From Siphonodentalium dalli (Eukaryota; Mollusca; Scaphopoda; Gadilida; Siphonodentaliidae): a DNA stretch of 64,000 nucleotides. This document shows positions 14,189 through 61,486 of this stretch, piece by piece. The position numbers were made by a program, and so were the translations under genes. The notes below the pieces were generated by a model. It was not told where the DNA came from, made no database searches, and saw only the letters and a list, made by a program, of their open reading frames with translations. Within the stretch, counting starts at the first letter, position 1; each line of letters opens with the position of its first letter. The stretch spans positions 121,959,989-122,023,988 of the forward strand of contig CP136068.1 of the NCBI GenBank assembly GCA_032622095.1, in the 5' to 3' direction.

Positions 14189-16174
14189 TGTGACCCGCCA
14201 TATAAAATCCAGTCATAAGTCAGGATTTTTTTTACCCTGTGCCAATGCATTCTCTTATATATGCGAGTCGACCATAGGTTGCCTCGCATATATAAGAGAA
14301 TGCATTGGCCTAACAATTTTACGAGTCTGGTGGTTTTACTGATGATATTGAACATTGTTCACAGTCAGAAGAAACGCATGAAAAGTCAACAAAGTTGCAT
14401 GCTTCAAGTTCGAGGGTGGCTTTCAGGTCTGGAATAGAGTCTAGAGCAAGTGATAGAGTTCAATTCCCTCAAATTTTCCCTCATGCATCATTACAACATG
14501 AGTATGTGGGAATGGACATAGCATTCAAAGACTTGTCCTTCCAACAATTTGTTGCGGGGGAACTGGAGACCATCCAGCGAGCAGGAATTCATGAAATTGA
14601 AAGGAGAGGTAGATTAAGTTTTCTCACTAAGATTGTGTATTATTATACAACATATGAATGGAAGGCCTTATTAACAACATTTTATGGAGACTGGCTCCGT
14701 AGAGTAGAGTTAGGGGCAAATACATGGACAGACGACCCTGCTATTATTGAAACGCCTATTCTCGCCAAACATGTTAGGACTAAATCTAAGTGGGGTAACT
14801 CGGTTGGTGACGCTCCGTCATCGCAAAGTCAAAATTATAGACCTAAGTGGGGTAACTCTAGCATTGGTGACCCTCTGCCATCTCAATCAAGTCAAGGTCA
14901 AAATTCTAGAGTTAGTCATGAGTCGTTGCCACAGGGACCTTGGTTCTGTTCAATGTTCAACAGGGGGAAGTGTTTTTCACAGGCTCCACATCCTGGATTC
15001 ATTAGGGGGCAATCAAGGTCATTGGAACATTTTTGTGCCACTTGTTGGCAAGTCAGAAGAGAAAAGGCCTTTCACGCAGAGTCGTCCAACGTGTGTCCCT
15101 TTATTAAAAAATGGTGACTAGATGGAAAGTGTTCACACTTGCATGAATTAAATCCAGCAGCCAATATGTTTTATCCTGAGTATATGACAAAGAATGGTCT
15201 CAATATCAGTAAGTCAGATTCAAAAACTTCAACGTGCATGAGAAACACGCCTGTTTCGACCAAAAAAGGTTCTTTGTCAGAAGTGGAAATGAATCAAGAA
15301 CATTCAGTTAACAACAACATTGTTGAGGTTAAAGAGGTGACATTGAATCCATTGGCTAAGGTGTTCATTTCGGAGCTAGAGGAAGTCTCTGTTGGAAGTT
15401 GTCAGACAACACTCTCTAAATTAGATAGAGCTCATAAAGAGAAAAAGAATCTGGCAGCACCAACACAAATTCCTCCTTCTCCAAATGATCATTCATTCCA
15501 GGGCTACATTTTAGATATACACAAGGTAATTTCAGATTCAGGGAAATATAATTTTGAAGGCTGTAGGATACCATTGAAAACCCATTTTAAACTGGATAAT
15601 ATCAAACAAATGCTTAGGAATTATAAAGATTTTAGAGTTGTAGAATTTTTGGAATTTGGATTTCCCATAGGCTATACTGGTAATAGAGATGTAGAGAAAT
15701 TACCTTTCCAAATAAACCATAAAGGGGCCAGAGAGTATCCAATGGACCTTAGGAAGTACTTAGAAAAAGAAGTTAATTATCATTCAATTCTAGGTCCTTT
15801 GCCACCAGATTCCTTCGAGCATATCAAAATAAGCCCACTTAACACTGTTCCCAAATTTTTTAAATAAGTGTTTCTTACAATTTTTAGGACATAAAATAAA
15901 AAACATCCATTACCCTGCAGGGAGCCCCACACATATATAGAAGCATATAGAAGAGTGTCGTCTGCTCATGTTTGTCTGGGGCTCTGTATGGGTGAAATTA
16001 TAAAATTGTTAAAGAATACAAGAAAAAATTATTAAAATTGTAAAAAATTGTTAGGCCAATGCATTCTCTTATATATGCGAGGCGACCGATGGTCGACTCG
16101 CATATATAAGAGAATGCATTGGCACAGGGTAAAAAAATCCCGACTTACGACTGGATTTGATATGGCGGGTCACA
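14189..16174 (+). mobile_element. TA-flanked composite element with captured DIRS-like gag-RT fragment
   Basis: The terminal inverted repeats of about 125 bp start TGTGACCCGCCATAT and run through GTCGTAAGTCGGGATTTTTTTACC into a hairpin module at each side (14237-14309 and 16052-16125). TA lies on both flanks. The uninterrupted site in G2 fixes the target duplication as TA, because the joined flanks give the same 14-bp site length. The 1.7-kb interior holds a retrotransposon gag-RT fragment (14314-15855), then a 140-bp segment also present at 20074-20213, then the AT-rich cassette spacer. The transposon superfamily is not assigned. Confidence 0.85.
14314..15867 (+). pseudogene. DIRS-like retrotransposon gag-RT fragment, one in-frame stop
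   Basis: One frame is open from 14314 (no ATG; it abuts the hairpin) to TAA at 15865, broken only by TGA at 15115-15117. The first part has a gag-like region (WKALLTTFYGDW) and a Cys/His cluster: WFCSMFNRGKC, EHFCATCW, then H..ESSNVCP. After the stop, DGKCSHLHELNPAANM continues the same protein. The last 100 residues (EFLEFGFPIGY, NHKGAREYP, LGPLPPDSFEHIKISPLNTVPK) match the entry to the reverse transcriptase of DIRS/Ngaro-type elements. The RT palm, RNase H and tyrosine recombinase are absent: after NTVPK the frame runs into unrelated sequence. About 518 codons remain of a much longer polyprotein. Confidence 0.85.
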
Positions 16175-17006
16175 TATTACAGTCCATAGAGTGAAAGGGA
16201 ACTCGGACAGTTTATATGTTTAAGTAACTGGAGGTTACCCTGATGATGCATAAACTGTTTGGGATTAATCAGATGAAAAAGTTTGGCTGCAGGGAGTGCC
16301 ACAGGATGCAGAAATACTTATAAAAAGAGTAAAATCTGAGATGGCTCCTATCTGCGTACAGACCTGTCACCCCGAAGATCCATATGAAGTTTGGTCATGA
16401 TCGGATGAGGGAGTTGGTCTCTTGGGTGCTCCGAAGGACATACCGGTAGTCATACAAAGAGTAAAATCCAAGATGCTTGTTTTCAATGATATATGGAAAA
16501 ATTTCATGGCTCCCATCTAGTGGTTCTCCCCTGAAGATCCATATGAAGTTTGGTGAAGATCGGATGAGGCATGTGGTCTGTATGGTGTGGCAAAGGATTT
16601 AGTCGTGTAAAGAGTAAAATACAAGATGGCTGTTTTTTTACCAAAAATCTTTCAAATTTGATAGCTCATATCTAGAGGTGATCCAAAACATGCCTGTACA
16701 TTTTCAAAACAAATACGGGCTGTAGCGATGGATTCAAATTTGAAAATGAATTTCGTAAAAAATTAATGGCTCCCATCTAGAGGTCACCCTGAAGATCCAT
16801 ATGAAGTTTGGTGACGATCGGATGAGAGATGTGAAATGTAAGATGTGCTAACGGAAATTGTTGACTGACTGACGCACAGTCGGATGCATAGATGGATGGA
16901 AGATGAATGCAAGTCGGTCAGACATTTATATGTGATGAAAGTTTTGTGTCAGATGAACTTTATGCATACTCCATGGAATTCATGGGAATTAATTAACATC
17001 AATTTG

Positions 17007-17404
17007 TTAACCCTCTACCCAACAGAACGGCCCTGTGCCAATGCATTCTCTTATATATGTGAGTCGACCATAGGTCGCCTCGCATATATAAGAGAATGCA
17101 TTGGCTTAACACATTAAAAATTATAAAATTGTTAAAGAATGTAAGAAAAAATGATAAAAAGTGTTAAATTTTTTTTTTTTAGGCCAATGCATTCTCTTAT
17201 ATATGCGAGGCGACCTATGGTCGACTCGCATATATAAGAGAATGCATTGGCACAGGGCATAACTGTAACCATCACAATGTGGTCAATGAGCCGGTTCCAA
17301 TGATATCCATATTTGTATGGTTCTATTGAGACAGACCGAAGATATTTTAGGCTGTTGAAGCTTTATTTGGCCGGTTTTGGCCGGTTTGTTGGGTAAAGGG
17401 TTAA
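17007..17404 (-). mobile_element. Family B TTAA element (B1), complete
   Basis: Bounded by TTAA at 17007-17010 and 17401-17404. Ends are CCCTCTACCCAACA and TGTTGGGTAAAGGG. Hairpins are at 17037-17106 and 17184-17257 around an AT-rich spacer. The asymmetric arm carries AAACCGGCCAAAACCGGCC and TTCAACAGCCTAAAATATC. The empty site in unit 2 (ATTTGTTAATGGGACAC, about 17738) confirms TTAA duplication. Confidence 0.92.
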
Positions 17405-17835
17405 TGGGACACAATAGGGACATGTGAAAAGTCATAGATGCCTGTAAAACAACTATCATCAACAAGTACATGTTAAAACATACTAACTTTCTTCCAATTA
17501 TCATGATCAATAATTCTCCAATATAACAGGATTTTGCATGTAAATCGTTATTTGAACATTTCTGTTACAACTACATTACTGATCAAACCGATCAAAGTCC
17601 AATTAGTCCCATAAAATAATTGGATGAGGGAGTTGGTCCTTTGGGTGCTCCGAAGGACTTTGCCATACAAAGAGTATGAAGTTTTGTGTCAGATGAACTT
17701 TATCCATACTCCATGGAATGCATGGGAATCAACATAAATTTGTTAATGGGACACAATAGGGACATGTGAAAAGTCATAGATGCCTGTAAAACAACTATCA
17801 TCAACAAGTACATGTTAAAATATATAACTTTGTTC

Positions 17836-18089
17836 CAAGCCTTGAAATAGTGTGTCTGTCATTTGCAGAATGAGGTTCCCAGAGGGTGAATTTAGTGATG
17901 CTACCCCACATAGCGGGCTAGCATCACCAAATTAACCCTCTGGGAACCTCATTCTGCTGAGGTGCAAGCAGAATGAGGTCCCCAGAGGGTGAATTTGGTG
18001 ATGCTAGCCCGCTATGCGGTGTAGCATCACTAAATACACCCTCTGGGGACCTCATTCTGCAAATGACAGACACACTATTTCAAGGCTTA
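17836..18089. mobile_element. Family H element (H3), complete
   Basis: Flanked by CTTTGTTC at 17828-17835 and 18090-18097, a perfect 8-bp target duplication. Twin hairpins with a short spacer (GCTGAGGTGCAAGC). The unit 1 empty site reads CTTTCTTC once. Confidence 0.92.
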
Positions 18090-18199
18090 CTTTGTTCCTA
18101 TTATCATGATCAATAATTCTCCAAAAGATTTTGCATGTAAATCGTTATTTGAACATTTCTGTTACAACTACATTGCTGATCAAACCGATCAAAGTCCAA

Positions 18200-18592
18200 T
18201 TAGTCCACTAAAATAATTTGAAAACAATCAGATAACTAAAACTAAAGTTATCACCCAGAAACCAAAATAATTGGCAAATTCTAAGTCAAGAAAGACCATA
18301 CAACGGCAAAAATGTCCAGACCAAAACCAAAATTGAGCTTGACCTATATTTTCATGTGGTTAATCTACATACAAAGTTTCAAAACATTCAGAAAATTAAA
18401 ACTAATGTCATTATCCGGAAACCAAAATAATTGGCAAATTCTAAGTCCTGACCAATACACATATTATGGTACATGAAAATACCAAAAAAGTTAAGTAGTG
18501 GGGGAGGGGTGTGCACAAGGGGGTCCTACCAGCCAATGGACTAAAATTGTTTTAACATCTACTGAAGGACATAGCACAATGGTAGTAATTCA
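18200..18592 (+). repeat. GGGCCATAACTCTG-family debris
   Basis: Contains repeated AAAACTAA.GTTATC..GAAACCAAAATAATTGG units (about 18240 and 18405). No gene. Confidence 0.55.
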
Positions 18593-18992
18593 TTAACCCT
18601 TTACCCAACAAACCGGCCAAAACCGGCCAAATAAAGCTTCAACAGCCTAAAATATCTTCGGTCTGTCTCAATAGAACCATACATATATGGATATCATTGG
18701 AACCGGCTCCTTGACCACATTGTGATAGTTACAGTTATGCCCTGTGCCAATGCATTCTCTTATATATGCGAGTCGACCATAGGTCGCCTCGCATATATAA
18801 GAGAATGCATTGGCCTAAAAAAAATCTTTTTTTAACACTTTTTACCATTTTTTCTTACATTCTTTAAAATTTTTATAATTTTTAATGTGTTAAGCCAATG
18901 CATTCTCTTATATATGCGAGGCGACCTATGGTCGACTCGCATATATACGAGAATGCATTGGCACCGGGCCGTTCTGTTGGATAATTCATTAA
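18593..18992 (+). mobile_element. Family B element (B2), right tip decayed
   Basis: The left TTAA/CCCTTTACCCAACAAACC is intact. Hairpins are at 18747-18816 and 18894-18968. The right end reads TGTTGGATAATTCATTAA. AATTCATTAA occurs on both sides. Confidence 0.85.
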
Positions 18993-19360
18993 GATGCCCA
19001 CAATATTGGATAGTTACACTACTGTTTATGGATATGTGCTTTTCATCACATTCTTACCTATTTTTCCATTAACAAGCTCTACATCAACTGGTGACACTCT
19101 ACCTGTAATTTAGAATAATATTAATTCAATCAGTATTATGAAAATCTGAATATAATCTGAATATAAAACATAATATCCTAATTCCTTTCTGACCGACCTC
19201 ACATCGCTCGAAATGTTCTGAACTATATACTTGTTATTGGGGACAGGTACAATCACTTCTTACCTAGCTGTCACCTCAGAAGTTTGCCTTTGGCATGTTT
19301 GCATACCTTTAAATCATATGTGAGACCATAACTGTTTCAGAGTGAAAGGATGAGATTATT
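18993..19360. other. Intronic sequence without recognised feature
   Basis: Nothing beyond ordinary AT-rich sequence seen. Confidence 0.4.
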
Positions 19361-19733
19361 TTTCGCAAAATTTCAGGAAGTCATGAAAGTAAATACTGTT
19401 AGGCCAATGTATTCAATGATACAGTAATGCTCTAAGTAATCGACCTCTTAACCACAGCAGAATTATGGGTAACTTTTCAGGATTTAATCGGAAATATGGC
19501 TTGTTGCCATTCATTGGAAAGCTCTCAGTGAGAGCTTTCCAATGAATGGCAACAAGCCATATTTCCGACTAAATCCTGAAAAGTTACCCATGATTCTGCT
19601 GTGGTTAAGAAGTCGATTACTTAGAGCATTACTGTATATGTGAGGTGCTGTATGGGCGACTCGCATATATGAGAATGCATTGGCACAGTGTTTTCGCAAA
19701 ATTTCAGGAAGCTCCAGCCATGAAAGGTTAATT
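19361..19733 (-). mobile_element. Family A remnant interrupted by P4
   Basis: The left part (TTTCGCAAAATTTCAGGAAG and GTTAGGCCAATGTATTC) and the right part (TATGTGAGGTGCTGTATGGGC ... ATGAAAGGTTAA) flank a P element inserted at the TATA of the hairpin arm. Confidence 0.75.
19422..19634. mobile_element. Family P element (P4), complete
   Basis: Full palindrome, TA on both sides, inserted in a hairpin module of family A. Confidence 0.9.
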
Positions 19734-19756
19734 TCACTCCATCAATTCATTGTTGT

Positions 19757-20241
19757 TTAACCCTTTCTATACTCAATAGATTCTCCCATTCAGCTATAAA
19801 GGAATACATTGGAATGGTCTATTATTCATTTGGAGGGATGTTCAGGTAATAAAAGCAGACGACAGACATGGGAAAATATAATAGAAGTGCAGAATGATAC
19901 ATATTCATTGAAAGGAAATGTTCAATAAAAAGTTCAACATGTTTGTTGAACTTATTATCTGAACATTTCCTATTTTTTACCCTGTGCCAATGCATTCTCT
20001 TATATATGCGAGTCGACCATATGTCACCTCGCATATATAAGAGAATGCATTGGCCTAACAATTTTTTATCATTTTTTTTAAATAAATGTTTCTTACAATT
20101 TTTTAGGACATAAAATAAAAAACATCCATTACCCTGCAGGGAGCCCCACACATATATAGAAGCATATAGAAGAGTGTCGTCTGCTCATGTTTGTCTGGGG
20201 CTCTGTATGGGTCAAAGAGTATTTAGTATAGAAAGGGTTAA
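19757..20241 (+). mobile_element. Family D TTAA element (D1) with one hairpin module
   Basis: TTAA at 19757-19760 and 20238-20241. Ends are CCCTTTCTATACTCAATAG and TTTAGTATAGAAAGGG. The interior has a GTTCAACA..TGTTGAAC palindrome, one hairpin module (19985-20057), and a segment (20074-20213, ACCCTGCAGGGAGCCCCAC) shared with the composite element at 15856-16000. Confidence 0.85.
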
Positions 20242-20777
20242 ATGTTCACAAGTGGGTTCATCTGGACAGACAGACAGACAGACTAGAGACAAATGGTTGA
20301 TTCAGAGATTCATAGAACTACTTCAAAACTTGTATCTCAGGTTCATAAACACAACCAACATGAACAGACCATACTCACTTTTACCAGAATATTTATCCAT
20401 CATAGGAAGCTAATATATGGAAATAAACTCCAAAATAGTATGGCTACACCATTGTAGCACACATCTATCTATTAAAGGTCATTCATCAAGGAATCCACAG
20501 AAGACATTAAAGCACTGTTACAATGTTATGATTAATCATTCTAATTCAATGGTTTTGTAGAAGATATTTCACTTCGAATGAGGCTCGGTAGTGCCATGTA
20601 ATGCCTCATACACGTGTGTTAGGTATAGTTAGGTATTATTCAAACATAATAGCCAAAGACTTATTGACCCACTCGAATGTACAGAACACAATAGGCAGTG
20701 ATTTAGCATTATTTGTTTGGGCTGTCTCATTTTAAGGTCATAAATTAATAAGAGGATCACAGACATTAAGGTCAGTC
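20242..20777. other. Intronic sequence, GACAGACAGACAG microsatellite only
   Basis: A short (GACA)n run lies at 20265-20282 within the end of D1's flank. Otherwise no feature seen. Confidence 0.4.
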
Positions 20778-20830
20778 AGAACATTTAACAGCACCAGTGA
20801 AAACTACAATCAAAACCTGTTGAAACTTCT

Positions 20831-21276
20831 TTAACCCATCGGCCCTAATTTACGGTCTGTAAAATCGGCCCTAAAAAAAATAAAAATAAAAATAAATAAT
20901 TTTGGGTTGAATTTTTTTTGGGTATGCTTAAGCATGCTATAGCGAATTTAAAAACAAACTGGATAAAACCTTAGGGGCATGTTATAATTCAAAACTATCA
21001 CCAAGTATTCATAGTAATAATTTTGATTCCCTTGAAAAACGTAAGATTCCCTGGCACTAAACCTACAAAATAAGTCTGTTAAAGAATATAAGAAAAAATT
21101 ATTAAAATTGTATTAACAATTATAAAAAATAATAACAAATGATGAAAAATTGTTAGGCCAATGCATTCTCTTATATATGCGAGGCGACCTATGGTCGACT
21201 TGCATATATAAGAGAATGCATTGGCACAGGGTATATGGGTTGATACAAAAATCGGACCTGGCACTGAAAGGGTTAA
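20831..21276 (-). mobile_element. Family C TTAA element (C1), one hairpin module
   Basis: TTAA at both ends. The right end is AAAATCGGACCTGGCACTGAAAGGG and the left end CCCATCGGCCC. It holds ATGCTTAAGCAT and one hairpin (21152-21226) with half of the cassette spacer. Confidence 0.8.
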
Positions 21277-21322: not shown

Positions 21323-21666
21323 TTAACCCATTACCCAACAAACCAGCCAAAACAAGCTTCAACAGCCTAAAATATCTTTGGTCTGTCTCAATAGAACCAT
21401 ACAAATATGGATATCATTGGAACCGGCTCCTTGACCACATTGTGATAGTTACAGTTATGCCCTGTGCCAATGCATTCTCTTATATATGCGAGTCGACCAT
21501 AGGTCGCCTCGCATATATAAGAGAATGCATTGGCCTAAAACTTTTTTTATATTTTTTAATGTGTTAAGCCAATGCATTCTCTTATATATGCGAGGCGACC
21601 TATGGTCGACTCGCATATATAAGAGAATGCATTGGCACAGGGCCCTTCTGTTGGGTAAAGGGTTAA
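21323..21666 (+). mobile_element. Family B element (B3), spacer shortened
   Basis: TTAA ends with CCCATTACCCAACAAACC. Hairpins at 21466-21535 and 21572-21646 have only about 35 bp between them. The right TTAA (21663-21666) is also the left TTAA of the next element. Confidence 0.88.
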
Positions 21667-24652: not shown

Positions 24653-24655
24653 TGA

Positions 24656-28815: not shown

Positions 28816-28949
28816 TTAACCCTTTCAGTGCCAAGTCCGATTTTTGTATCAACCCATATTTCCTTGATCATTTTTCAAATTTATTGATTATAATAATGTG
28901 ATACATTGATGGAAAGAGCTCTTTGATACAAAAATCGGACTGGCACTTC
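28816..28949 (+). mobile_element. Family C short palindromic form (C2)
   Basis: TTAA, CCCTTTCAGTGCCAAGTCC, then TTTTTGTATCAACCC, and the inverse GATACAAAAATCGGACTGGCAC. The right tip is lost. It has no hairpin module, so it shows family C without the cassette. Confidence 0.75.
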
Positions 28950-29170
28950 CTGCTCCAAAAGTTTTATTTTATACACCAGAATCTAAATAAAAAATGTTTA
29001 AAACATGGAAGGTTTCCCAAAAAATTAACCTGGAACCCTGAATACCTCTTGAATCAAACTTGGCAGTTTCAAAGCATTTGGTATGATATATTACTTTAAT
29101 TTTCAGAAATGGCTATGGAAAATTTAATTCACCTACCACCATTTTCAAAAGAAAACCTCCAAACATTATG

Positions 29171-29620
29171 TGTCATTTTCAGAATGAGGTCCCGAGAGGG
29201 TGAATTTAGTGATGCTATCCCGAACAGTGGGCAAGTGTCACCAAATTCAACCTCTGAAAACCTCATTCTACTTAGGCCTCAATGGCCTATTCAATGATTT
29301 ATGTCATTTGTGTATTATGTGTATTATGTTTGGATTTGGAAATAAAAATATGTTTACACTAATGAGTTCCCCAGCTGAAGTTGGTGATGTTCACTTATTA
29401 GTCACCTCAATTATGCATTTTATCTTCTGCAAATTAGGGGATATAGAAACTTCCCAAAAGCGAAAAAGTAACTAAAAAAAATGTTAATTTGAAACTATAG
29501 ATACTTCCAAGAAGATGAGTCCTAAGCAGAATGAGGTCCCCAGACAGTGAATTTGGTGATGCTAGACCGCTGTGAGGGATAGCATCACTAAATTCACCCT
29601 CTGGGGACCTATCTGCAGGT
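29171..29620. mobile_element. Family H element, long-spacer form (H5)
   Basis: Hairpins at about 29180-29275 and 29525-29612. The spacer of about 245 bp includes GCAAATTAGGGGATATAGAAAC, related to the H2 spacer in inverse orientation. Confidence 0.75.
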
Positions 29621-32620: not shown

Positions 32621-33021
32621 TTAACCCTTTACCCAACAAACCGGCCAAAACCGGCCAAATAAAGCTTCAACAGCCTAAAATATCTTCGGTCTGTCTCAAT
32701 AGAACCATACAAATATGGATCTCATTGGAACCGGCTCCTTGACCACATTGTGATAGTTACAGTTATGCCCTGTGCCAATGCATTCTCTTATATATGCGAG
32801 TCGACCATAGGTCGCCTCGCATATATAAGAGAATGCATTGGCCTAAAAAAAATCTTTTTTTAACACTTTTTACCATTTTTTCTTACATTCTTATAACAAT
32901 TTTTTAATTTTTAATGTGTTAAGCCAATGCATTCTCTTATATATGCGAGGCGACCTATGGTCGACTCGCATATATAAGAGAATGCATTGGCACAGGGCCC
33001 GTCTGTTGGGTAAAGGGTTAA
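32621..33021 (+). mobile_element. Family B element (B4), complete
   Basis: TTAA at both ends. Hairpins at 32775-32846 and 32926-32998. Confidence 0.92.
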
Positions 33022-34082: not shown

Positions 34083-34480
34083 TTAACCCTTTACCCAACA
34101 AACCGGCCAAAACCGGCCAAATAAAGCTTCAACAGCCTAAAATATCTTCGGTCTGTCTCAATAGAACCATACAAATAATGATATCATTGGAACCGGCTCC
34201 TTGACCACATTGTGATAGTTACAGTTAGCCCTGTGCCAATGCATTCTCTTATATATGCGAGTCGACCATAGGTCGCCTCGCATATATAAGAGAATGCATT
34301 GGCCTAAAAAAAAACTTTTTTAACACTTTTTACCATTTTTTCTTACATTCTTAAACAATTTTATAATTTTTAATGTGTTAAGCCAATGCATTCTCTTATA
34401 TATGCGAGGCGACCTATGGTCGACTCGCATATATAAGAGAATGCATTGGCACAGGGCCCTTCTGTTGGGTAAAGGGTTAA
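34083..34480 (+). mobile_element. Family B element (B5), complete
   Basis: TTAA at both ends. Hairpins at 34237-34306 and 34383-34455. Confidence 0.92.
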
Positions 34481-37038: not shown

Positions 37039-37563
37039 TTAACCCTTTCAAGACAGGAGCTGCACTGGTGCAGCATTAAAGATCCTGTGCCAGTGCATTC
37101 TCTTATATATGCGAGTCCCATAGGGAGCCTAACATATATAAGAGAATGCACTAGCTTACAAGGTCAAGGTAAATATTGTTAGGCCAATGTATTCTCTTAT
37201 ATATGCAAGGCTCCCTATATGGGAGACTCGCATATATAAGAGCACAAGCCTTGAAATAGTGTGCCTGTCATTTGTAGAATGAGGTCCCCAGAGGGTGAAT
37301 TTAGTGATGCTACCCCGCACAGCGGGCTAGCATCACTAAATTCACCCTCTGGGAACCTCATTCTGCTGAGGCCTAAGCAGAATGAGGTTCCCAGAGGGTG
37401 AATTTAGTGATGCTAGCCCGCTGTACGGGGTAGCGTCACTAAATTCACCCTCTGGGGACCTCATTCTGCAAATGACAGGCACACTATTTCAAGGCTTGTA
37501 AGAGCATGCATTGGCACAGGGTTTTCGTAAAATTTCCGGAAGCTCCAGTCATGGAAGAGTTAA
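37039..37563 (+). mobile_element. Family A element split by H7
   Basis: TTAA at 37039-37042 and 37560-37563; left end CCCTTTCAAGACAGGAGC. The second hairpin is broken in its right arm by H7. Confidence 0.88.
37245..37498. mobile_element. Family H element (H7), complete, 254 bp
   Basis: Perfect 8-bp duplication TAAGAGCA at 37237-37244 and 37499-37506. Tips are CAAGCCTTGAAATAGTGTG and its inverse. The twin hairpins are nearly perfect, with spacer GCTGAGGCCTAAGC. It is inserted in a hairpin arm of family A. Confidence 0.95.
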
Positions 37564-40058: not shown

Positions 40059-40317
40059 TTAACCCTTTTATGATGGGAGCTGGTGCAGTATTAAAGACCC
40101 TGTGCCAGTGTATTCTCTTATATATGCGAGTCTCCCATAGGAAAGCCTCGCATATGTAAGACTGCACTGGCTTACAAGATCAAGGTAAATATTGTTAGAA
40201 CAATGCATTCTCTTATATTAGTATATGCGAGGCTCTCTATGGATACTTATACCAGAGAATCCATTGGCACAGGGTTTTCACAAAAAATTCAGGAAGCTCC
40301 AGTCATGTAAGGGTTAA
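40059..40317 (+). mobile_element. Family A element
   Basis: TTAA ends with CCCTTTTATGATGGGAGC and CATGTAAGGG. Both hairpins (about 40105-40165 and 40190-40270) carry mutations in the right arms. Confidence 0.85.
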
Positions 40318-40731: not shown

Positions 40732-41673
40732 TTTGATACACTATTTGTAAAAAATACTACTTTGAACAAGATTATTCTCCATTTCTGTTTGATCACCATA
40801 CCGGAGTGTTTAACCCTTTGAGTGCCAGGTCCGATTTTTGTATCAACTCATATACCCTGTGCCAATGCATTCTCTTATATATGCGAGTCGACCATAGGTC
40901 GCCTCGCATATATAAGAGAATGCATTGGCCTAATAATTTTTCATCATTTGTTATTATTTTTTACAATTTTTTACAATTTTAATAATTTTTTCTTATATTC
41001 TTTAACTCTTTCAGTATTTTGTAGGTTTAGTGCCAGGGAATCTTACGTTTTTCATGGGCATCAAAATTATTACTATGAATACTTGGTGATAGTTTTGAGT
41101 TATAACATGCCCCTAAGGTTTTATCCAATTTGTTTTTAAATTCACTATAGCATGCTTAAGCATACCCAAAAAAAATTCAACCCAAAAAATCTAAAAAAAA
41201 AATTTGATACACTATTTGTAAAAAATACTACTTTGAACAAGATTATTCTCCATTTCTGTTTGATCACCATACCGGAGTGTTTAACCCTTTGAGTGCCAGG
41301 TCCGATTTTTGTATCAACTCATATACCCTGTGCCAATGCATTCTCTTATATATGCGAGTCGACCATAGGTCGCCTCGCATATATAAGAGAATGCATTGGC
41401 CTAACAATTTTTCATCATTTGTTATTATTTTTTACAATTTTTTACAATTTTAATAATTTTTTCTTATATTCTTTAACTCTTTCAGTATTTTGTAGGTTTA
41501 GTGCCAGGGAATCTTACGTTTTTCATGGGCATCAAAATTATTACTATGAATACTTGGTGATAGTTTTGAGTTATAACATGCCCCTAAGGTTTTATCCAAT
41601 TTGTTTTTAAATTCACTATAGCATACTTAAGCATACCCAAAAAAAATTCAACCCAAAAAATCTAAAAAAAACA
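40732..41673 (+). repeat. 471-bp direct tandem duplication
   Basis: TTTGATACACTATTTGTAAA starts copies at 40732 and 41203. Each copy contains the end of R3 and most of C3. The copies differ at only a few bases, so the event is recent. Confidence 0.92.
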
Positions 41674-41711
41674 AAAAAACAAAGATCGGCCCCTGGCACT
41701 GAAAGGGTTAA
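40810..41711 (+). mobile_element. Family C element (C3) with internal 471-bp tandem duplication
   Basis: Left TTAA/CCCTTTGAGTGCCAGGTCC; right GGCCCCTGGCACTGAAAGGG/TTAA. The hairpin module plus half spacer occurs twice (40862-40935 and 41333-41402) because of the duplication. Confidence 0.85.
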
Positions 41712-42270: not shown

Positions 42271-42735
42271 CAAGCCTTGAAATAGTGTGTCTGTCATTTG
42301 CAGAATGAGGTTCCCAGAGGGTGAATTTAGTGATGCTACCCCGCATAGCGGGCTAGCATCACCAAATTCACCCTCTGGGAACCTCATTCTGCTGAGGTGT
42401 AAGCAAAATGAGGTCCCCAGAGGGTGAATTTAGTGATGCTATTCCTATCCTGCACAGTGGGCTAGCATCACCAAATTCATCCTCTGAGGATCTCCTTCTG
42501 CTGAGGTCTCATCTACTGGGAATTATCTACAGTAATGCCCTAAACTTATGGCATTACTGTATAGTCTCATAATAAGCTTGTTTTAGTTTACCCTTCTGTT
42601 CAGTTTCAATATCCCTAAATTTGCAGTTGATGCCTAAACAGAATGAGGTCCCCATAGGGTTAATTTGGTGATGCTAGCCTGCTGTTCAGGATAGCATCAC
42701 TAAATTCACCCTCTGGTGACATGATTCTGCAAATG
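42271..42735. mobile_element. Family H element, long form (H10) with P relic in spacer
   Basis: Tip CAAGCCTTGAAATAG. There are three hairpin-like blocks: 42300-42395, 42408-42500 and a decayed one at 42640-42730. A 30-bp P relic is at 42530-42559. Confidence 0.7.
42530..42559. mobile_element. Family P relic (P16), tips only
   Basis: CAGTAATGCCCTAA joined almost directly to TATGGCATTACTG with TA on both sides. About 183 bp of the palindrome is gone. Confidence 0.85.
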
Positions 42736-47967: not shown

Positions 47968-48525
47968 CAGTAATGCCCTAAGTAATCGACTCCTTAACCC
48001 TTTACCCAACAAACCGGCCAAAACCGGCCAAATAAAGCTTCAACAGCCTAAAATATCTTCGGTCTGTCTCAATAGAACCATACAAATATGGATATCATTG
48101 GAACCGGCTCCTTGACCACATTGTGATAGTTACAGTTAGCCCTGTGCCAATGCATTCTCTTATATATGCGAGTCGACCATAGGTCGCCTCGCATATATAA
48201 GAGAATGCATTGGCCTAAAAAAAATCTGTTTTTAACACTTTTTACCATTTTTTCTTACATTCTTTAACAATTTTATAATTTTTAATGTGTTAAGCCAATG
48301 CATTCTCTTATATATGCGAGGCGACCTATGGTCGACTCGCATATATAAGAGAATGCATTGGCACAGGGCCATTCTGTTGGGTAAAGGGTTAAACACAGCA
48401 GAATTATGGGTAACTTTTCAGGATTTAGTCGGAAATATGGCTTGTTGCCATATTTCCGACTAAATCCTGAAAAGTTACCCATAATGCTGATGTGTTTAAG
48501 GAGTCGATTACTTAGGGAATTACTG
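47968..48525. mobile_element. Family P element (P17), split by B6
   Basis: The left tip CAGTAATGCCCTAAGTAATC continues after B6 as ACACAGCAGAATTATGGG. The centre is shortened. TA flanks match the R3 empty site. Confidence 0.93.
47994..48392 (+). mobile_element. Family B element (B6), complete, inside P17
   Basis: TTAA at 47994-47997 and 48389-48392. Removing one TTAA and the element restores CTCCTTAAACACAGCAG as in P14 and P15. Hairpins at 48149-48217 and 48295-48367. Confidence 0.95.
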
Positions 48526-53620: not shown

Positions 53621-54436
53621 GTTAACTGATGCCTTATTGAACATGATCTTCTCAAAGATAGCATCCTTAATATCTGTAGAGGACAGGCAAATAATAAAAA
53701 ATGTAGATCATGATTTATTTAAAAAAATAAAAAATAAAATGAACTTTATATAAAAGAGTACCAATAGTTTGATGAAATTATCCAATTGATGTTCTAAAAA
53801 ATTGCCCCCCCCCCTTATTTCTATACCTGTAGTTGGCAGACGAACAATCAAAAATATAACAGAAAATCATGATTTACCTTAATTACATGTACTGGTAACT
53901 TAATTAATTAAAGTACTAGTTAGTTATCCACCAGGTATGTATTTAAATGATGTAATTATCAAATTGATCTCTGAAAGATAGTCCCCACCCCCTTAATTTC
54001 TACAGTGGACAGACAAACAGCAACACTTTATATGCACATCATGATTTACATGTACCTTTATAAATTAGAAATACCTTTAAGAGAGTACAAGTATCCACAG
54101 GGAGGGAATTAACTGATCCAATTACCAATATAAGTTTGAGCAGAGGAAGTTATAAGTCACCTTGCCAGGTGTATCATATGCCTCGGATTTGTTTACATAA
54201 AAATGTCTGCTGTTATACCTGTGTAGACTAAAGCAAGGAAGAGTGCTCTATAAAAGATTTATCGACACAGGATTAAACAAATATTGTTTATTCTAAGGTT
54301 TACCATAAGTATTTAGGGTTCCCATGCAGTTGGTGAGTCAGACAGTATAAAGGGTATTCAGTGCATTAGGCCATCAGAAAAATGCCAGCAATACCAAAGC
54401 AAGTAAAGTGCACAGCACAGAGCATCCCTTGCAGGT
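53621..54436. other. Sequence without recognised feature
   Basis: Imperfect repeat of about 190 bp (GATGAAATTATCCAATTGATG / GATGTAATTATCAAATTGATC). No gene. Confidence 0.45.
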
Positions 54437-54795
54437 CTGAAAAAATAGTGCCGGACATTTGCAGAATGAGGTCCCCAGAGGGTAAATTTAGTGATGCTAC
54501 CTTGCACAGTGGCCTAGCATCACTAAATTCAACTTCTGGGGATCTTATTCTGCTTAGGCCTCATCTTCTCTGGAAAGTATCTTTATTATCAGTTAACAAA
54601 TTTTTAAATTTCTTTAAAAACATCTTTAGAAAGTTTCTTTTTCTATTTTAGTTTAGTTTCTGAAAATATCCCCAAATAGGCAGATGACACAATGCATACT
54701 TGAGGCGCCCAATGGGTGCACAACTGCACATCACCATCTGGAAACTTAAATCTTCGTCTATGTCTCCCACAGCAGATAAGGCCATGTAGAATGTG
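54437..54795. mobile_element. Family H element, long-spacer form (H11)
   Basis: AATAGTGCCGGACATTTGCAG, a first hairpin with AGGTCCCCAGAGGGTAAAT, a long spacer and a decayed second hairpin. Confidence 0.7.
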
Positions 54796-54810
54796 ATCCC
54801 CAGAGGATGA

Positions 54811-56685
54811 ATTTTGTCTGATCATTCCCCATTTATGAAGAAACAACCATTAGCTTTTATTTTTTTAAATGCGGCTTTCAGTTATCAGACTCGATTAATT
54901 GCCGAAAAATAATGCTAATCACAATCAACTACCAGGTATAGTATAAAATTGCCCAAAACATGTTTTTTGTCAACATTGTGTTCAACGAAATTTGGCCGGA
55001 TTGTAAAATATCTAACACCCAAAGCCATTTGATTTTAGAGTTACCCATCTAGTAACGAGAGGCCGATCACGGTCGGCAGATGTTTAACCCATACCTTGGC
55101 GACAGCGATGAGCTATTTTCATATATTCTTACCCCATCCTTTTCATGAGTGCAAAACTTTAAACAATTCACACCTTACTATTAATTCACAAGTGAAATCA
55201 CACTTATTGGGCACCTTGCTCACATTAACACAATGTTAACACAGACGTGGCTTTGATTTCAACCTATTAGTGACTCCAACACAGATACATGTATGTCTTA
55301 TAGAGTTATAAGGCTATTTAAGCTCAATCCATAGTCGGAGAGAAGCACCATAGCTGTTAAATATCAAATAGTTAAGAAATTAGGTAGATAAACATCATAG
55401 CAACTCAATTTATCTATTTATTACATTGGAACATGAGACATTACATATTGTGTTTTTTTTTTTTATTATCATTGCTATTTTTTTGTTTATTCTATTTTGT
55501 GTCAGCTGCATATTAAAAATTCATAGCAACCTATTAATATTTCACCACTAAAAAAAAATCAATACCTGATCAACTATAGAAGTGAGGGATGTATAGACCT
55601 GGATATAAAATATGATTGCTAATGATTGGATATAAATGTTAATTTTATTGTAAGTTGATCATTAGAAAGATATGTTTGTGAACAGTTTAAATATAATTAA
55701 AGTTAAGGTTAATATTATCACAACCATTCGATCGATACCAAAATCTATACAGGTGAAGAATGTGTCATGATTATCACAGATGTGATTATTTATAGAGTAA
55801 TCATGCAAAAAATATTTAGCTATCACATTGTGTCAACAGGATTGGTGAAGGATGTTAATATATTTAAGCAAATAAACCAAATGACCCTCACTATGCAGGT
55901 TAGAGGTGTGTTATCATAAACTGTGCCAGAACTATAAACATAATCAATGGAAATATTTGAGTTATCAAATTGGATAGTAATGGGTTAATCTTAGCCAAAC
56001 TAATGAACTGTAAACACAGAGTAGTCAACAAAAAGCATGTCATTGGATTTAGAAACCCATACAATAAGTCAGTCTCAAGAATCCCAGCACTGTTAATATT
56101 ATCCTGTAGCCCAAATGCAATTGAGGGAATTTCAAAATAAGACATATCCTCTAATGATGAATTTCAATTGGTCATTTCTTGAAACACTGACTGAACCTGG
56201 CTCAAAGTTAAAGTGATAATTTAATATATGTCTATCAGATAATATGAGTCAATCGAATGGGTTAATTTTAATCCCAAATCCATGCAAATTAAAAGTGGAT
56301 CACCATCAACATGTACATAGAATAGGAGAATGATCAAATAAAAAACATCAGAAGACCATATGATGTGTGCAGAGGGTTAATCATTTTCAATGACATCATA
56401 TGATGGAACTAAGGAATGCTGTATTAATTATTTTCTAAGTTATAACAACAGTGTCTCTGTAAACAATAATGCCATGAACTGCGTGGTTTCAACAGAGAAC
56501 AGAACTGGAATAAAGAGTCTAACATCAATCACAGTTTGACAGATGTTTATAAGTCTGCAGCCACCAGTGGAACTATCAGGTCACTGTGTCCAAAGCAATG
56601 AATTATCTCCTTCCAATAACACAGGTGTGTGTTGTGTCTTGTTCTATTCAAATTAAAAAGTGCATGGAAAAGAGGTATGAATTAT
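54811..56685. other. 1.9 kb of AT-rich sequence without recognised feature
   Basis: No repeat family, exon signature or hairpin module found. Possibly unique upstream sequence of the transporter gene. Confidence 0.4.
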
Positions 56686-56689
56686 AAAG

Positions 56690-56830
56690 GGCCAATCCCA
56701 GATTCCCAGGAAATAAATCAGCAAATCCCAGTTCCCAGGAAAAAAATATGCCATTTCCCAGTTCCCAGGAATTAAAAGTAAATCCCAGTTCCCAGTAAAA
56801 AAAAAAGCCAGTTCCCAGGAATTAAAATAT
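56690..56830 (+). repeat. CCCAGTTCCCAGGAA minisatellite
   Basis: Four to five units of about 28-34 bp, each AATCCCAGTTCCCAGGAATTAAAA-like. A related array is at 58675-58850. Confidence 0.8.
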
Positions 56831-57795
56831 TATATAGAGTATCGACAAAACATACAATATTCACAAGTAATGTAGATCAATGTACATATATTGTATTTTT
56901 ATGCTATCTTATGATTTACTGGCTACTGTCTAGTCAATTACATCATTTTATACAGGGGCTGACCCAGCTCGTTTTCGACTCCCATATACCGGGTTTGGGG
57001 ACATTGAGTTTGGGCGCCCAAACAAATTGAAGGCAAAAAATAAAAAAAATTAAATTAAATTTTTTTTTTTTTTAAATTCAGGTCCCAATTCATATTATTA
57101 CAAGATACACAGCATTTATGTATTTATATATATTGACATTTAAGTTTACAAAAAGATTTAAGTTTAACAGTTGGAATCATACTGTAAAGTATGTTTGGTT
57201 CTATCTAGCTTTCATCTGTGAAAACTTCAAATAGTTCAGGTTTGTTACCATTTAGCCTTCAGACTTTAGTATTTCAATCAAATTAAAGCGAAATTACATA
57301 ATACAGAATAGGAACAGTGACAATTTGATCAAATCAACCTGGTTATCAGGTGGGATCTCATAATACCAAATGAATAATTAACGTAGAGATTAGTTCTAAT
57401 TACTAGGGCCCTAACATATACCGGTATATCAATTGGAAACAAATAGAACACAACATAATTTTGAGAGTGTTTAACTACAAACCTAGAAATAAGAAATAAT
57501 GAAAAATGTAACAGGACTGTTCATTCTATCTTTTTCATCTCAGTCATACAGTGGGGCATATTATACATTATTAGATTATATTATGCATTATAATGATAAT
57601 ATATTAATATGTTATCATTATGTGTGTTTGTTTAATTCTGTTAAAACAATGTTATCTTGTAAGTTGAAATAAATATGTTGGTTCATTGTGTCTTTTCTTT
57701 TGTGTATAAATATAAATTGAGTTCATGTATTAAATGAATTTAGTTTTCTAGCTTAAATGACTCTGGTCATATTAATAGCTACTGAAAGTATAAAA
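56831..57795. other. AT-rich sequence without recognised feature
   Basis: Nothing identified except poly(T) at 57060. Confidence 0.4.
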
Positions 57796-58005
57796 TTCTT
57801 TTTGGTTGAAAAATGAAAATCATCCTTCAGATATGCCCAAGATCACTCTCAGAGCATTGAAATTTCAAACAATTTCCCGGGAGAAGCCCAATGAGAGGGG
57901 CCACCCCTCTCATACTCTCCCCGGCTCCTGCCATCGGCAGTCGACGATGACCTTTGGTCATCGGGAGGTGTCCCCAAATAAAACCTGGATCAGGCCCTGT
58001 TACAT
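57796..58005 (+). repeat. Unrecognised GC-rich repeat fragment
   Basis: Abruptly GC-rich against AT-rich flanks (AATTTCCCGGGAGAAGCCC ... GGCAGTCGACGATGACC). A 68-codon frame crosses it. It looks like a retroposed or transposon fragment, but I do not recognise the family. Confidence 0.45.
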
Positions 58006-58674
58006 GACATAAAATGCGAACCTATATGCAAATCCATTGAACAGAATCAACAGATCACTCTTTACACTGATTTACACCACCGCAAATCAGGTATTCCCTA
58101 AATGTCCAGGTGATGTATGCAAATTCATGTGGTCTCAATATATCTAAGACGGTTTGTGATTTGAGATTGTGCCCCATAACTGGAATGTTAGTATGAAAAA
58201 CCAAGTCACAAACCAACTGAGAAATAGGAGACAACACGGATGTACACAAGTCACCAGATACAACAGCTTAGATTGACCAAGTGGTAAAACTCGTATAAAT
58301 AAATGACTTTAAAATTTACTGGATACCAGCAGACTTTGTTGGTAGTTGTTACAGATGCACGGTATCGACAACAGCTGAATACTCCCTACAGAGAACTTAC
58401 ATTAAAAAGAGTTAAATAAATTATATATTTTTAATTTGACATAACGGTTTAATAAACATATAACTCAATAAACATTTGAACTATTAACGATATATATAAA
58501 TATAATTTGGCACACGATTCTTGATCACAAGTTTATGTTACAGTTTTACTATCAAATATCACAAAAACACATGAAACAGAACAAAACATGCCTGACTCAT
58601 CTTTCATCGCTGGAATACCGGTCGGGTGTGTGCATTTTTGGGGAAATCAGTTCATAATTAGGTGAATAAAAATG

Positions 58675-58850
58675 GAAATCCCGATTAATTGGGGATAATT
58701 TCCCGGATACCGGAAAATTAATTTCAACCTTTCCCGGGTCCCGGTGGAATTCTGTTCCCGATTCCCGGAAAATTAAATCTAATGATCCCAATTCCCGAAA
58801 AATAAAAAGGGTCGATCCCGATGTCCCGAAAATACCCGTTCCCCCCCATG
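58675..58850 (-). repeat. TTCCCGGAAAATTAA minisatellite
   Basis: About five units containing GATTCCCGGAAAATTAAA. Related in structure to 56690-56830. Confidence 0.75.
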
Positions 58851-58894
58851 AATAGGTATGTTATTCCATTATCAATATCATCAATTAATATGGG

Positions 58895-59755
58895 ATATCC
58901 ACCAATTGCGCTTCAGAGCAATTATTGTTAAAGGCACGTGAGGCCTTAGTTGTCGAAAATATTCATATTTGTTCTAATCACCGTAAACAGAAAAACATTA
59001 AAACGCATACAGTTTCGTTCATATATACCATGACCATCACGTAAACAGTATGTTATCATAAAGACCTACTATATTTTACCTAAGCAAGAGCCTGATTATG
59101 TTACAGAAGACAGCACAATGCTACTGGCTAATCACACACATATGGCATAAACGCTCTTTATTAGTTCCATATCAGGAATTAACCAAGAAAGAACGCTCTT
59201 TATGTTTGCCATCATAATATAAACAAACACCAGAAAAGTAACTTTTTATGCTTTTGTTTACATAACAATGGTCAAACATTTGACAATAACATACTGTTTA
59301 TGCGATATTTCTTATTTGTATACGGACAAAGTCTGTCTACATTTTGATGTTCTTTCTGTTTGTGGCGGTTTTTGACGGGTGGAAATATTTTCACAGGATA
59401 CCCACCGTCAAGGCCAACCGTACCTTTAAGCTTGCACCCCTAGATAGGTAGGCTATTCCATTGCTGAAGCGCAATTAATTTTGTATTGGATTTATTCAGT
59501 AATTAACTGGGGGTTAGCCATATATGGGAAAATAATTGCGCTGAAGTGCAATTGATAATTGAGCTGAAGCGCAATTGGATGGCACTGAAGCGGAATTAAT
59601 TTTTAATTAAAAATTAATTAACTGGGTGTTAAGCCATACATGGAAAATTAATTGAGCTGAAGCACAATTAATTTTGTATTGGATTTATTCATTAATTGAC
59701 TGTGTGCTTAGCCATATAAGGAAAATTAATTGCTCTGAAACCAGAATACTAAGTT
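58895..59755. repeat. GCGCTGAAGCGCAATT cluster
   Basis: AATTGCGCTTCAG at 58905, then repeated GCTGAAGCGCAATTAATTTTG and ATATGGAAAATTAATTG units at 59462, 59545, 59565 and 59650-59735. It also holds the copy of the 32340 repeat (59260-59440). It resembles the GCGCTTAAGCGC block of 50.9 kb. Confidence 0.7.
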
Positions 59756-60967
59756 TGTTCAAATGGTGCTAAAAGTGAAACACAAGTACATTTTAAAGTT
59801 TTAGAATCCTTTTGTATTTAAATTAATCAAGCTTACTGCCAATATGCTTCCAAAGATTAGTTCAAAGTTCAAACATTTTGAGAGACCAAAGAACGAAAAC
59901 TAAGTGGAGTACAAGAATTTCAATATTAGTTTCAGAAAGTTGACGATATAAGCATTTAACTGAAATCAAATTCAGAATGGCAACACAAAAATAGAAAATT
60001 GGTTTATGTGGAACTTTAATGTGGAATTAACCAATTATTATATTATTATAGGGCTCTGACCTACAAGCCATGGCTTCCACAGAGCCCCATTATCATAGTA
60101 TAATATATACGGTTAAGCCAGTACATGTACTTTGATCATCAAATAAAATCACTTGAGTAAATGTTGAGTTGAGCCTTGGTCAAGTTGTTGTGGAAATGGG
60201 CAAATTACATGTGGTCAGGTTATCCTAAGATTGTCCCAGAAACATTAGGTTAGTTCACTGCAAAGTGCCGATCCTTGTTCTCAAGTACTTCCAACTTTCC
60301 GGGGAACCCTGGGATTCACTTGGTGATGTCACAACGATGATCAGCCTCTTTCGATTCTCAACCTTCGACAAGGCAGGATCGTTTATTGAAAGCTCCGACT
60401 TTTATTATAAGGACTGTTTTCTTTACATTCTTTGACTATTGTATATAAAATATAAAGCATATGCACCCCAATTATACATGTACATGTTCAATTTTGAATG
60501 GGCATTAAAATATCCATGCAACTCTGCAGCAACTGCATTGCAAATATTTCTGGTCAGTATGTGTGACTTTGTGTGATATTGAAAACAATACATATCTATC
60601 TGGCTTGTCAACTTGCAATTTGTTCCATTGGAAGGTTGGTTGATACAGTCCTCGAAATTGGCCACGGGATATAAGCAATGCAATAGAAAACACTGTGGCA
60701 ACATTTGAAATCTAACATGCCACAGCATTAAATTTTCCATGGGACATTTTTCTTAATTTTGAGAGCTGTGTATATATATTTTAGAATTTTATATTGATTT
60801 TTCAAAAGTAGAACAAGTGTTGTAATTCCAGAAAATAATTCTCAAAAATAAATTAATTATAGCAAAAATTTACAATTTACCAAGCCCAGCCACCAGTTAA
60901 ATGCTATATATGTCTGCAATTTGTAAAGTCTAATTAGTATGGCTGCTTTTAGTTCCCAGGTGGCTGA
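59756..60967. other. Sequence without recognised feature
   Basis: Overlapping frames at 60423-60740 have no family motif or splice context. Confidence 0.4.
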
Positions 60968-61337
60968 TTAACCCTTTACCCAACAGAAGGGCCCTGTGCC
61001 AATGCATTCTCTTATATATGCGAGTCGACCATAGGTCGCCTTGCATATATAAGAGAATGCATTGGCTTAACACATTAAAAATGGTAAAAAGTGTTAAAAA
61101 AAAGATAATTTTTAGGCCAATGCATTCTCTTATATATGCGAGGTGACCTATGGTCGACTCGCATATATAAGAGAATGCATTGGCACAGGGCATAACTGTA
61201 ACTATCACAATGTGGTCAATGAGCCGGTTCCAATGATATCCATATTTGTATGGTTCTATTGAGACAAACCGAATATATTTTAGGCTGTTGAAGCTTTATT
61301 TGGCCGGTTTTGGCCGGTTTGTTGGGCAAAGGGTTAA
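60968..61337 (-). mobile_element. Family B element (B7), complete
   Basis: TTAA at both ends. Hairpins at 60997-61068 and 61117-61190. Its right TTAA abuts a truncated family A copy. Confidence 0.9.
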
Positions 61338-61486
61338 GAGAATACACTGGCTTATATTACAAGGTCATGGTAAATATCGTTACTGTAGGCCAATGCATTC
61401 TCTTATATATGCGAGGCTCTCAATGGAAGACTCGCATTTATATGAGAATGCATTGTCACAGGGTTTTCGCAAAAGGGAAGGGTTAA
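61334..61486 (+). mobile_element. Family A element, left half lost
   Basis: Begins within a hairpin arm (AGAGAATACACTGGC), has a full second hairpin at 61387-61460, and ends GGAAGGGTTAA. Confidence 0.75.

What the first reader, a model, noticed from the sequence alone, without database searches (positions are those of the whole stretch)
14237..61460. A hairpin cassette shared by unrelated-looking transposon families
About 36 copies of a 70-bp hairpin (arm core ATGCATTCTCTTATATATG, tips GTGCC and GGCCTAA) occur, usually as two hairpins in mirror order around an AT-rich spacer. The outer sequence differs: families A, B, C and D have different TTAA-type ends, and the element at 14189 has TGTGACCC ends with TA duplication. 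The spacer is homologous too, so the whole cassette moved between families. Family C exists without it (28816) and with one hairpin (20831, 40810). This suggests either a parasite of transposons with its own mobility or repeated recombination that grafts new ends onto one core. I know of no described element with this behaviour.
Basis: partly seen in the sequence, partly recalled or inferred. Interest (0 to 1): 0.88.

Follow-up and report, generated by a model that had tools for sequence, protein, structure and literature searches.

The report
Hairpin module shared by unrelated transposons
A short DNA module made of two mirror-image hairpins sits, cut at exactly the same base, inside at least four kinds of small transposon with unrelated ends in one large genome, where one half of its hairpin occurs more than 120,000 times; it shows how a piece of junk DNA can spread by changing vehicles.

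Summary
The 69-nt hairpin is a near-perfect palindrome (-54 kcal/mol, z -14). It forms the core of ~88-bp inverted repeats (CCCTGTGCC-hairpin-GGCCTAA) around an AT-rich spacer. One half-hairpin 33-mer has 124,021 exact copies in the 2.23-Gb genome. Three TTAA families (A, B, C) and one family with 2-bp A/T target duplications (T, the 14189 element) carry it, all with the junction at the same place, the CCC. Their ends share at most the TTAACCCTTT tip.

I see no sign of ongoing shuffling: every T end examined and 13 of 13 A ends sampled carry the module, and no intact module-free T was found. C is mixed (78 of 100 with, 22 native). This looks like a few founder events followed by amplification through the outer ends.

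Some copies lie outside all these families. There the module end usually abuts TA (49 TA, 5 TT, 8 CA, 0 CT). This fits a module with its own TA-targeting ends, but A-runs shared with T and one copy with a ~10-bp duplication argue against it, and no clean empty site was found.

I call it a new variant of a known kind (nested/composite MITE). Independent mobility is plausible, not shown.

The parts
14189..16174 (+). T element: TGTGACCCGCC... 44-bp outer inverted ends, TA on both sides, long form of the module inside
   Evidence: other T copies about 380-480 bp, 15,177 T-end 17-mers in the genome
14235..16129 (+). Module (CCCTGTGCC ... GGCACAGGG), long version with 1.55 kb of foreign protein-like sequence in the spacer
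14242..14308 (+). Hairpin 1 of the T element
16056..16122 (-). Hairpin 2 of the T element (mirror copy)
14314..15867 (+). Truncated open frame (one stop at 15115-15117), probably captured; no Pfam match at the family cut-offs; resembles from memory the gag/zinc-finger and reverse-transcriptase start of tyrosine-recombinase retroelements
   Evidence: resemblance is a lead only
17007..17404 (-). A element (TTAACCCTTTACCCAACA-type ends), hairpins 17038-17104 and 17184-17250
18593..18992 (+). A element, hairpins 18747-18813 and 18895-18961; right end mutated
19984..20760 (+). Module copy outside any recognised element on its left side; hairpin 19987-20053; right limit not fixed
20831..21276 (-). 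C element with one hairpin (21158-21224); one end TTAACCCATCGGCCC, the other the C inverted repeat
21323..21666 (+). A element, short spacer, hairpins 21467-21533 and 21569-21635
28816..28960 (+). C-type element without the module (native form, continues TTCCTTGATC); right limit approximate
32621..33021 (+). A element, hairpins 32775-32841 and 32924-32990
34083..34480 (+). A element, hairpins 34236-34302 and 34383-34449
37039..37240 (+). B element (old), two diverged hairpins, right end lost
40059..40317 (+). B element (old), two diverged hairpins, TTAA at both ends
40810..41280 (+). C element with one hairpin (40862-40928), first unit of a 471-bp tandem duplication
41281..41711 (+). C element with one hairpin (41333-41399), second unit
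47994..48392 (+). A element, hairpins 48147-48213 and 48295-48361
60968..61337 (-). A element, hairpins 60999-61065 and 61117-61183
61334..61486 (-). B-type remnant with one complete hairpin (61390-61456)
417..678 (+). B element (old) with two diverged hairpins, TTAA at both ends; outside the reported range
1..250 (-). B element (old), two hairpins, cut by the window edge
3798..4065 (+). B element (old), two diverged hairpins; left limit approximate
8030..8256 (-). B element (old), two shortened hairpins; limits approximate

Best explanation
The module ('H') is an old non-autonomous DNA element with its own inverted ends: about 88 bp reading CCCTGTGCC-hairpin-GGCCTAA at each side of an AT-rich, internally repetitive spacer. 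Shown: H is a unit with exact ends, because unrelated outer sequences meet it at the same place in T (both sides), A (both sides), B (both sides, within a base) and C (one side), and because copies exist outside those families. Inferred from structure and copy number: in the composites the unit is now carried and amplified by the outer ends (TTAA ends for A, B, C; TGTGACCC ends with a 2-bp A/T duplication for T). Inferred: each composite arose once or a few times, most simply by H inserting at a TA inside an older element, after which the composite spread and H multiplied as a passenger. Inferred and least certain: H ends are used by a TA-targeting transposase supplied in trans; T's own transposase, which also makes 2-bp A/T duplications, is a candidate, since two hybrid copies have one H end and one T end with TA outside each.
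For: Exact and repeated boundary. Family-specific monomorphism: 15,177 T ends, 12,709 followed by an intact CCCTGTGCC, and every T end fetched without that intact 9-mer still has the hairpin, merely mutated or internally deleted; A-left ends 13 of 13 next to H. C occurs both ways: 78 with H, 22 native among the first 100 of 21,149. Copies outside the families: L068, L083, L089, L099, L126, L127, L129, L132/L133, L135. Both flanks of L089 belong to one dispersed repeat whose paralogues lack H. Dinucleotide before CCC when preceded by two G/C: TA 49, TT 5, CA 8, CT 0; 13 independent fetched TA loci have a flank from no known family. On the end not selected for TA, L083, L126, L127 and L132 also show TA. 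Hybrids L097 and L134: one H end, one T end, TA at both. The hairpin consensus is identical in A, T and C and matched by the sampled E and L089 hairpins although spacers differ.
Against: No clean empty site with a single TA was found. Several copies outside the families keep a TAAAAAAAT-like stretch as at T's inner end (L068, L083, L126, L127, L040), so they may be T copies stripped of their tips. L089 shows a ~10-bp duplication of its target (CCTGCGGTCT / CCTGCTTTCT, once in paralogues) rather than TA, and L099 a 7-bp one (ACCGTCC). A and B junctions are not flanked by TA. 24 of the 49 TA hits begin CGTA; five of the six of these fetched are a T deletion subtype and the sixth is a C variant, so the raw count overstates the enrichment. 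Pattern loci were chosen by an exact 33-mer, which favours intact copies. No transposase carrying these ends was found; none was searched for.
Confidence: 0.5

Rival explanations
1. End grafting by repair: the module never transposes alone. A break next to a module lets one long inverted repeat fold back on the other and copy whatever lies outside it, giving identical outer sequence flush with both module ends; a composite with usable transposon tips then amplifies.
For: In T the two outer ends are inverted copies that abut the module exactly on both sides, with no leftover interior; no palindromic module-free T exists as an insertion target (1 hit genome-wide, itself a deleted module). Fold-back priming would put the junction at the same base on both sides automatically.
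Against: A and B have different left and right outer sequences, so copying alone cannot explain them. C has only one hairpin. It does not predict TA next to the module in copies outside the families.
Confidence: 0.22
2. One lineage, drifting tips: the hairpin is the palindromic binding site of a TTAA (piggyBac-like) transposase, so hairpin and TTAACCCTTT tip are conserved while the bases between them drift freely; A, B and C are branches of one family.
For: A, B and C all begin TTAACCCTTT or a near form. In piggyBac, identical 19-bp palindromes in both ends are bound by paired cysteine-rich domains (PMC11707139).
Against: Native C elements lacking the hairpin are abundant. T has no TTAA tip yet always carries the module. 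Between-family outer sequence is unrelated while within-family divergence is only 2-3% from consensus and the hairpin consensus is identical, so the tips did not drift gradually.
Confidence: 0.13
3. Retroposition: transcripts that begin at the module edge are copied into new sites by a LINE, giving copies with one sharp end at CCC, an A-rich other end and a 7-10 bp target duplication.
For: L089 has a ~10-bp duplication, supported by module-free paralogues; L099 has a 7-bp one with an A-rich stretch ATAAAAGAAAA. Several copies outside the families are sharp at CCC and A-rich at the other end.
Against: Only two cases, found after looking; the A-runs are also explained by T's inner end; L132, L126 and L127 show no long duplication beside the module.
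Confidence: 0.1
4. Plain founder effect with no special mechanism: random recombination joined the module to each family once, and the coincident boundary is chance or reflects loss of all other joints.
For: T and sampled A are monomorphic for the module.
Against: Random joints would not fall on the same place in seven separate junctions.
Confidence: 0.05

Closest known systems
Nested or composite MITEs (several element types within one amplified unit)
   Same: A non-coding unit inside another non-coding element, amplified by the outer ends.
   Different: The same inner unit, cut at the same place, in four unrelated outer families, fixed in T and in sampled A, at very high copy number. Searches of the held papers found no described case; the library is incomplete.
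Foldback transposons such as Tetris/DAIBAM of Drosophila virilis (PMC4079207)
   Same: Long inverted repeats, modular structure, no coding capacity, seeding of tandem satellite arrays (here 97-bp arrays in L008/L009).
   Different: Tetris and DAIBAM share their tips and differ inside; here the inside is shared and the tips differ. Tetris has 8-10 bp duplications.
REPINs, two mirrored REP hairpins around a spacer, moved by RAYT (PMC3116915)
   Same: Two palindromes in mirror order round a spacer, high copy number, non-autonomous.
   Different: Bacterial and much shorter; thought to be moved by RAYT enzymes. No such enzyme was sought here, and this module lies mostly inside other transposons.
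piggyBac-type TTAA MITEs
   Same: TTAA on both sides and CCCTTT tips in A, B and C; palindromes near the ends are part of piggyBac recognition (PMC11707139).
   Different: The palindrome here is 69 nt, is itself part of a further inverted repeat, and also occurs in a non-TTAA family.
Helentrons / DINE-1 and their tandem-core relatives in bivalves (PMC4067079, PMC7492417)
   Same: Very abundant non-autonomous elements, sometimes with tandem cores; subterminal hairpins are known there (own knowledge).
   Different: Here target duplications and symmetric inverted ends are present, and no rolling-circle end structure was seen.

Membership tests
TTAA (piggyBac-type) MITE: outer ends of A, B, C | TTAA at both ends, CCC(T) tips in inverted orientation | tested here: met
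   e.g. 32621-33021, 34083-34480, 40059-40317; genome loci
TTAA (piggyBac-type) MITE: outer ends of A, B, C | Mobilised by a piggyBac transposase sharing the tips | not tested
Tc1/mariner-type element: T | Strict TA target duplication | tested here: not met
   TA, TT and AA duplications in an A(WW)T setting; 15 of 19 listed T copies (some are segmental duplicates) have an identical 2-bp A/T pair on both sides
Tc1/mariner-type element: module alone | TA target duplication at an empty site | tested here: inconclusive
   TA on both sides in L068, L083, L126, L127, L132; no clean empty site
Composite/nested MITE | Outer family also exists without the inner unit | tested here: inconclusive
   Met for C (22 of 100); not met for T or for A in 13 of 13
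Composite/nested MITE | Inner unit also exists outside the outer family | tested here: met
   L083, L089, L127, L132 and others
Foldback element | Long inverted repeats making up much of the element | tested here: met
   ~88-bp repeats of the module, ~132 bp with T ends, of about 355-460 bp
REPIN | Two mirrored palindromes with a spacer | tested here: met
REPIN | RAYT/HuH transposase in the genome recognising the tips | not tested
   Not searched
Structured RNA family | Match to a curated RNA family or compensatory changes | tested here: not met
   No Rfam match; 47 breaking against 2 compensatory cells among 63 distinct hairpins
SINE / LINE-mediated retrocopy | 7-20 bp target duplication with A-rich 3' end | tested here: inconclusive
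   L089 and L099 only

The most novel reading that the evidence does not exclude
The module is a parasite of transposons: its hairpin-bearing ends are real transposon ends that insert at TA, and by entering other families' elements between their tips it borrows their transposases, so a single core has been spread by at least two unrelated transposition systems to far more than 100,000 half-hairpin copies.
Probability: 0.33. Interest if true: 0.72.

Novelty: new variant of a known kind. Interest (0 to 1): 0.5.

Why it matters
MITE families are usually defined by their tips, with shared tips around changing interiors. Here the reverse holds: one interior with exact ends is found both under a TTAA system and under a 2-bp-duplication system and has become very abundant in the genome. 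If the module's own mobility were shown, it would be a clear eukaryotic case of an element that lives by riding other transposons, and its >120,000 half-hairpins would make vehicle change measurable. As a caution it shows that classification by internal sequence or by tips alone would file the same DNA under different superfamilies.

Tried and rejected
RNA gene: no Rfam match, and changes in the arms break pairs far more often than they compensate, so neither selection on the RNA fold nor palindrome self-correction is supported. Insertion into the centre of palindromic module-free T elements: the pattern finds one place, a deleted module. The matching palindromic form of C was not searched as an exact joint; short native C forms mostly continue TTCCTTGATC instead. 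L068 as a clean empty site: the duplicate L080 holds the same module with a 3.2-kb nested insert, and the C2 paralogue lacks ~88 bp more than the module. L089 as a clean TA site: paralogues show a ~10-bp duplication with extra bases. I first read E (L029) and C as symmetric; those were two reads of one hairpin and were withdrawn. The first A and T alignments mixed orientations and were redone. Whole-genome DNA search with the hairpin returned nothing because its words are too common. The hairpin was not found in the viral and prokaryote collections. Literature searches gave analogues but no match.
Full report
WHAT IS THERE. The arm ATGCATTCTCTTATATATG is present as reported. With its tips the hairpin reads GCCAATGCATTCTCTTATATATGCGAGtCGACCataGGTCGcCTCGCATATATAAGAGAATGCATTGGC. 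As RNA it folds into a single stem with one mismatch and a three-base loop, -54.3 kcal/mol against -13.6 for shuffles, z -14. Each hairpin carries a polar pair of tips, CCCTGTGCC outside and GGCCTAA, GGCTTAA or GGCTTAC inside, so the two hairpins of a pair are inverted copies of one ~88-bp repeat, not just two palindromes. I call the unit from CCC to GGG the module H.

SCALE. The window lies in a 2.227-Gb genome of nine contigs. One exact half of the outer repeat (33 bases) occurs 124,021 times, and the reversed control 0 times. No copy is found in the viral or prokaryote collections.

OUTER FAMILIES. T: TGTGACCCGCCATATCAAATCCAGTCGTAAGTCGGGATTTTTTTA|H|TAAAAAAATCCC..., mostly about 440-480 bp, with 2-bp A/T duplications (TA, TT, AA) in an A..T setting. 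A: TTAACCCTTTACCCAACAAACC... about 150 bp |H| CCSTTCTGTTGGGTAAAGGGTTAA. B: TTAACCCTTTCATGATGGGAGCTGCGC... |H| ...GGAAGCTCCAGTCATGGAAGGGTTAA; short old copies have a two-sided arm change (A-T to G-C) and CTCCC loops, while long copies (L006, L057) have interiors of the common kind. C: TTAACCCTTTGAGTGCCAGGTCCGATTTTTGTATCAACCCATATA|H with only one hairpin and a different right part. E: seen at one duplicated place, one hairpin. In every case the change from outer sequence to module falls at the CCC, in B within one base of it.

IS THE MODULE SEPARABLE? T: 15,177 exact T-end 17-mers, 12,709 followed within 16 bases by intact CCCTGTGCC. I fetched 14 stretches covering T ends that were not in the second list: all still have the hairpin, with point changes or internal deletions. 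A T element with at most 30 bases between its 17-mers occurs once and is a deleted module. So T and H are one family today. A: the first 13 A-left ends of contig 1 all adjoin H. C: of 21,149 ends that fit either continuation, the first 100 split 78 with H and 22 native; fetched native copies are fold-back or simple TTAA elements.

AGE AND CONSERVATION. Copies differ from family consensus by about 2-3% in outer parts. Hairpin columns not used for choosing loci differ by 0.3-3.0% (A) and 1.6-2.1% (T), spacers by 5.9% (A) and 2.3% (T). Within families the hairpin is therefore at most mildly protected. Between families the hairpin consensus is the same in A, T and C, and the sampled E and L089 hairpins match it, while spacers differ. 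Changes in arms break pairs (47 cells) far more often than they compensate (2 cells), which speaks against selection on the folded RNA; the left arm was partly fixed by the way loci were chosen.

COPIES OUTSIDE THE FAMILIES. In the sample chosen only by the 33-mer, L068 and L040/L051 are two-hairpin modules without T, A, B or C ends; the window copy at 19984 and the partial copy in L049 each lack such ends on the side that can be read. To find more I looked for module ends preceded by two G/C and TA: 49 in the genome. Relaxing the dinucleotide to [CT][AT] adds only 5 TT, 8 CA and 0 CT. Of 30 TA loci fetched, 14 (13 independent) have a flank from no known family; the rest are T or C variants. 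Where the other end was not chosen for TA, it is TA in L083, L126, L127 and L132, but not in L089 or L129. L097 and L134 have one module end and one T end, with TA outside both. L084, L098 and L125 have a module end at TA and an intact TTAA end at the far side. L132/L133 is the cleanest two-ended case.

WHAT SPEAKS AGAINST SIMPLE TA TRANSPOSITION. Many of these copies keep TAAAAAAAT or similar, as at the inner edge of T, so they may be stripped T copies. L089 sits in a dispersed repeat: paralogues L115-L119 run through the site without the module, but L089 repeats about 10 bp of the target (CCTGCGGTCT / CCTGCTTTCT) with a few extra bases, which looks like a longer duplication. L099 has ACCGTCC on both sides. 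Retroposition or another enzyme is possible for these two. A paralogue of L068 without the module lacks about 88 further bases and is not a clean empty site.

MECHANISM, WITH STATUS. Shown: exact module ends; joint presence with unrelated tips; fixation in T and in sampled A; copies outside. Inferred from structure: amplification by tip-specific transposases. Inferred, moderate: joining by insertion of H at TA inside older elements (natural for C, where a native variant CCCATATATCC exists). Inferred, weak: T transposase acting on H ends. The symmetric T ends without leftover interior fit fold-back copying as well or better, and I keep that as the main rival.

INTERIOR OF 14189. The 1.9-kb module there holds a long frame, 14314-15867 with one stop, lacking both protein ends. 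Pfam gives nothing above its cut-offs. From memory it resembles the gag and reverse-transcriptase start of tyrosine-recombinase retroelements; this is a lead only. Shorter modules join the same edges without it, so I take it as captured sequence.

COMPARISON. Nearest in behaviour are nested MITEs, foldback elements such as Tetris (PMC4079207), REPINs (PMC3116915) and piggyBac MITEs with end palindromes (PMC11707139). None described in the papers searched has one exact interior under several unrelated tips. The searches cover open-licence papers only.

VERDICT. Real, very abundant and unusual, but understandable as a composite-MITE system. New variant of a known kind.

Noticed in passing
G000 C1 about 735,000-780,000 (loci L010-L013) and C1 820,000-921,000 (loci L017-L026): The exact module 33-mer recurs every ~14,558 bp and every ~11,175 bp, so long DNA units containing A- or C-type copies are tandemly repeated.
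   Followed up: partly
L008/L009, e.g. L009:1992-2731 and L009:1681-1964: The hairpin with a short spacer forms a 97-bp tandem array, next to a 33-bp array built from the B-type end TTAACCCTTCCATGACTGGAGTTACCTCCC.
   Followed up: partly
window 14314-15867: Captured protein-like frame inside an otherwise non-coding element, truncated at both ends, with no Pfam match above the cut-offs.
   Followed up: partly
window, e.g. 17856-18069, 29171-29223, 37265-37478, 42291-42735: Another very abundant palindromic repeat (AGGGTGAATTTAGTGATGCTACCC...), about 20 or more matches in the window and in many loci.
   Followed up: no
window 1125-3390: A repeated segment whose translation recurs several times (EIGYLHGVINSSYSFKCRDLKLWDIVPNMLVICNIYIA), probably tandem non-coding repeats.
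   Followed up: no
L088, L093, L095, L131 (C variants): Between the module and the C end, short insertions such as TAGG, TACGG and TAGGCC lie before a second TA, like excision footprints of a TA element; these loci were selected for TA followed by two G/C, so the pattern is biased.
   Followed up: no
L080 (C1:6309500-6313800): Duplicate of L068 whose module carries a ~3.2-kb nested insertion.
   Followed up: partly
L082, L086, L090, L091, L096: A T subtype in which one end has lost the stretch between two TA dinucleotides (GGGTACGACTGG instead of GGGTAAAAAAATCCCGACTTACGACTGG).
   Followed up: no
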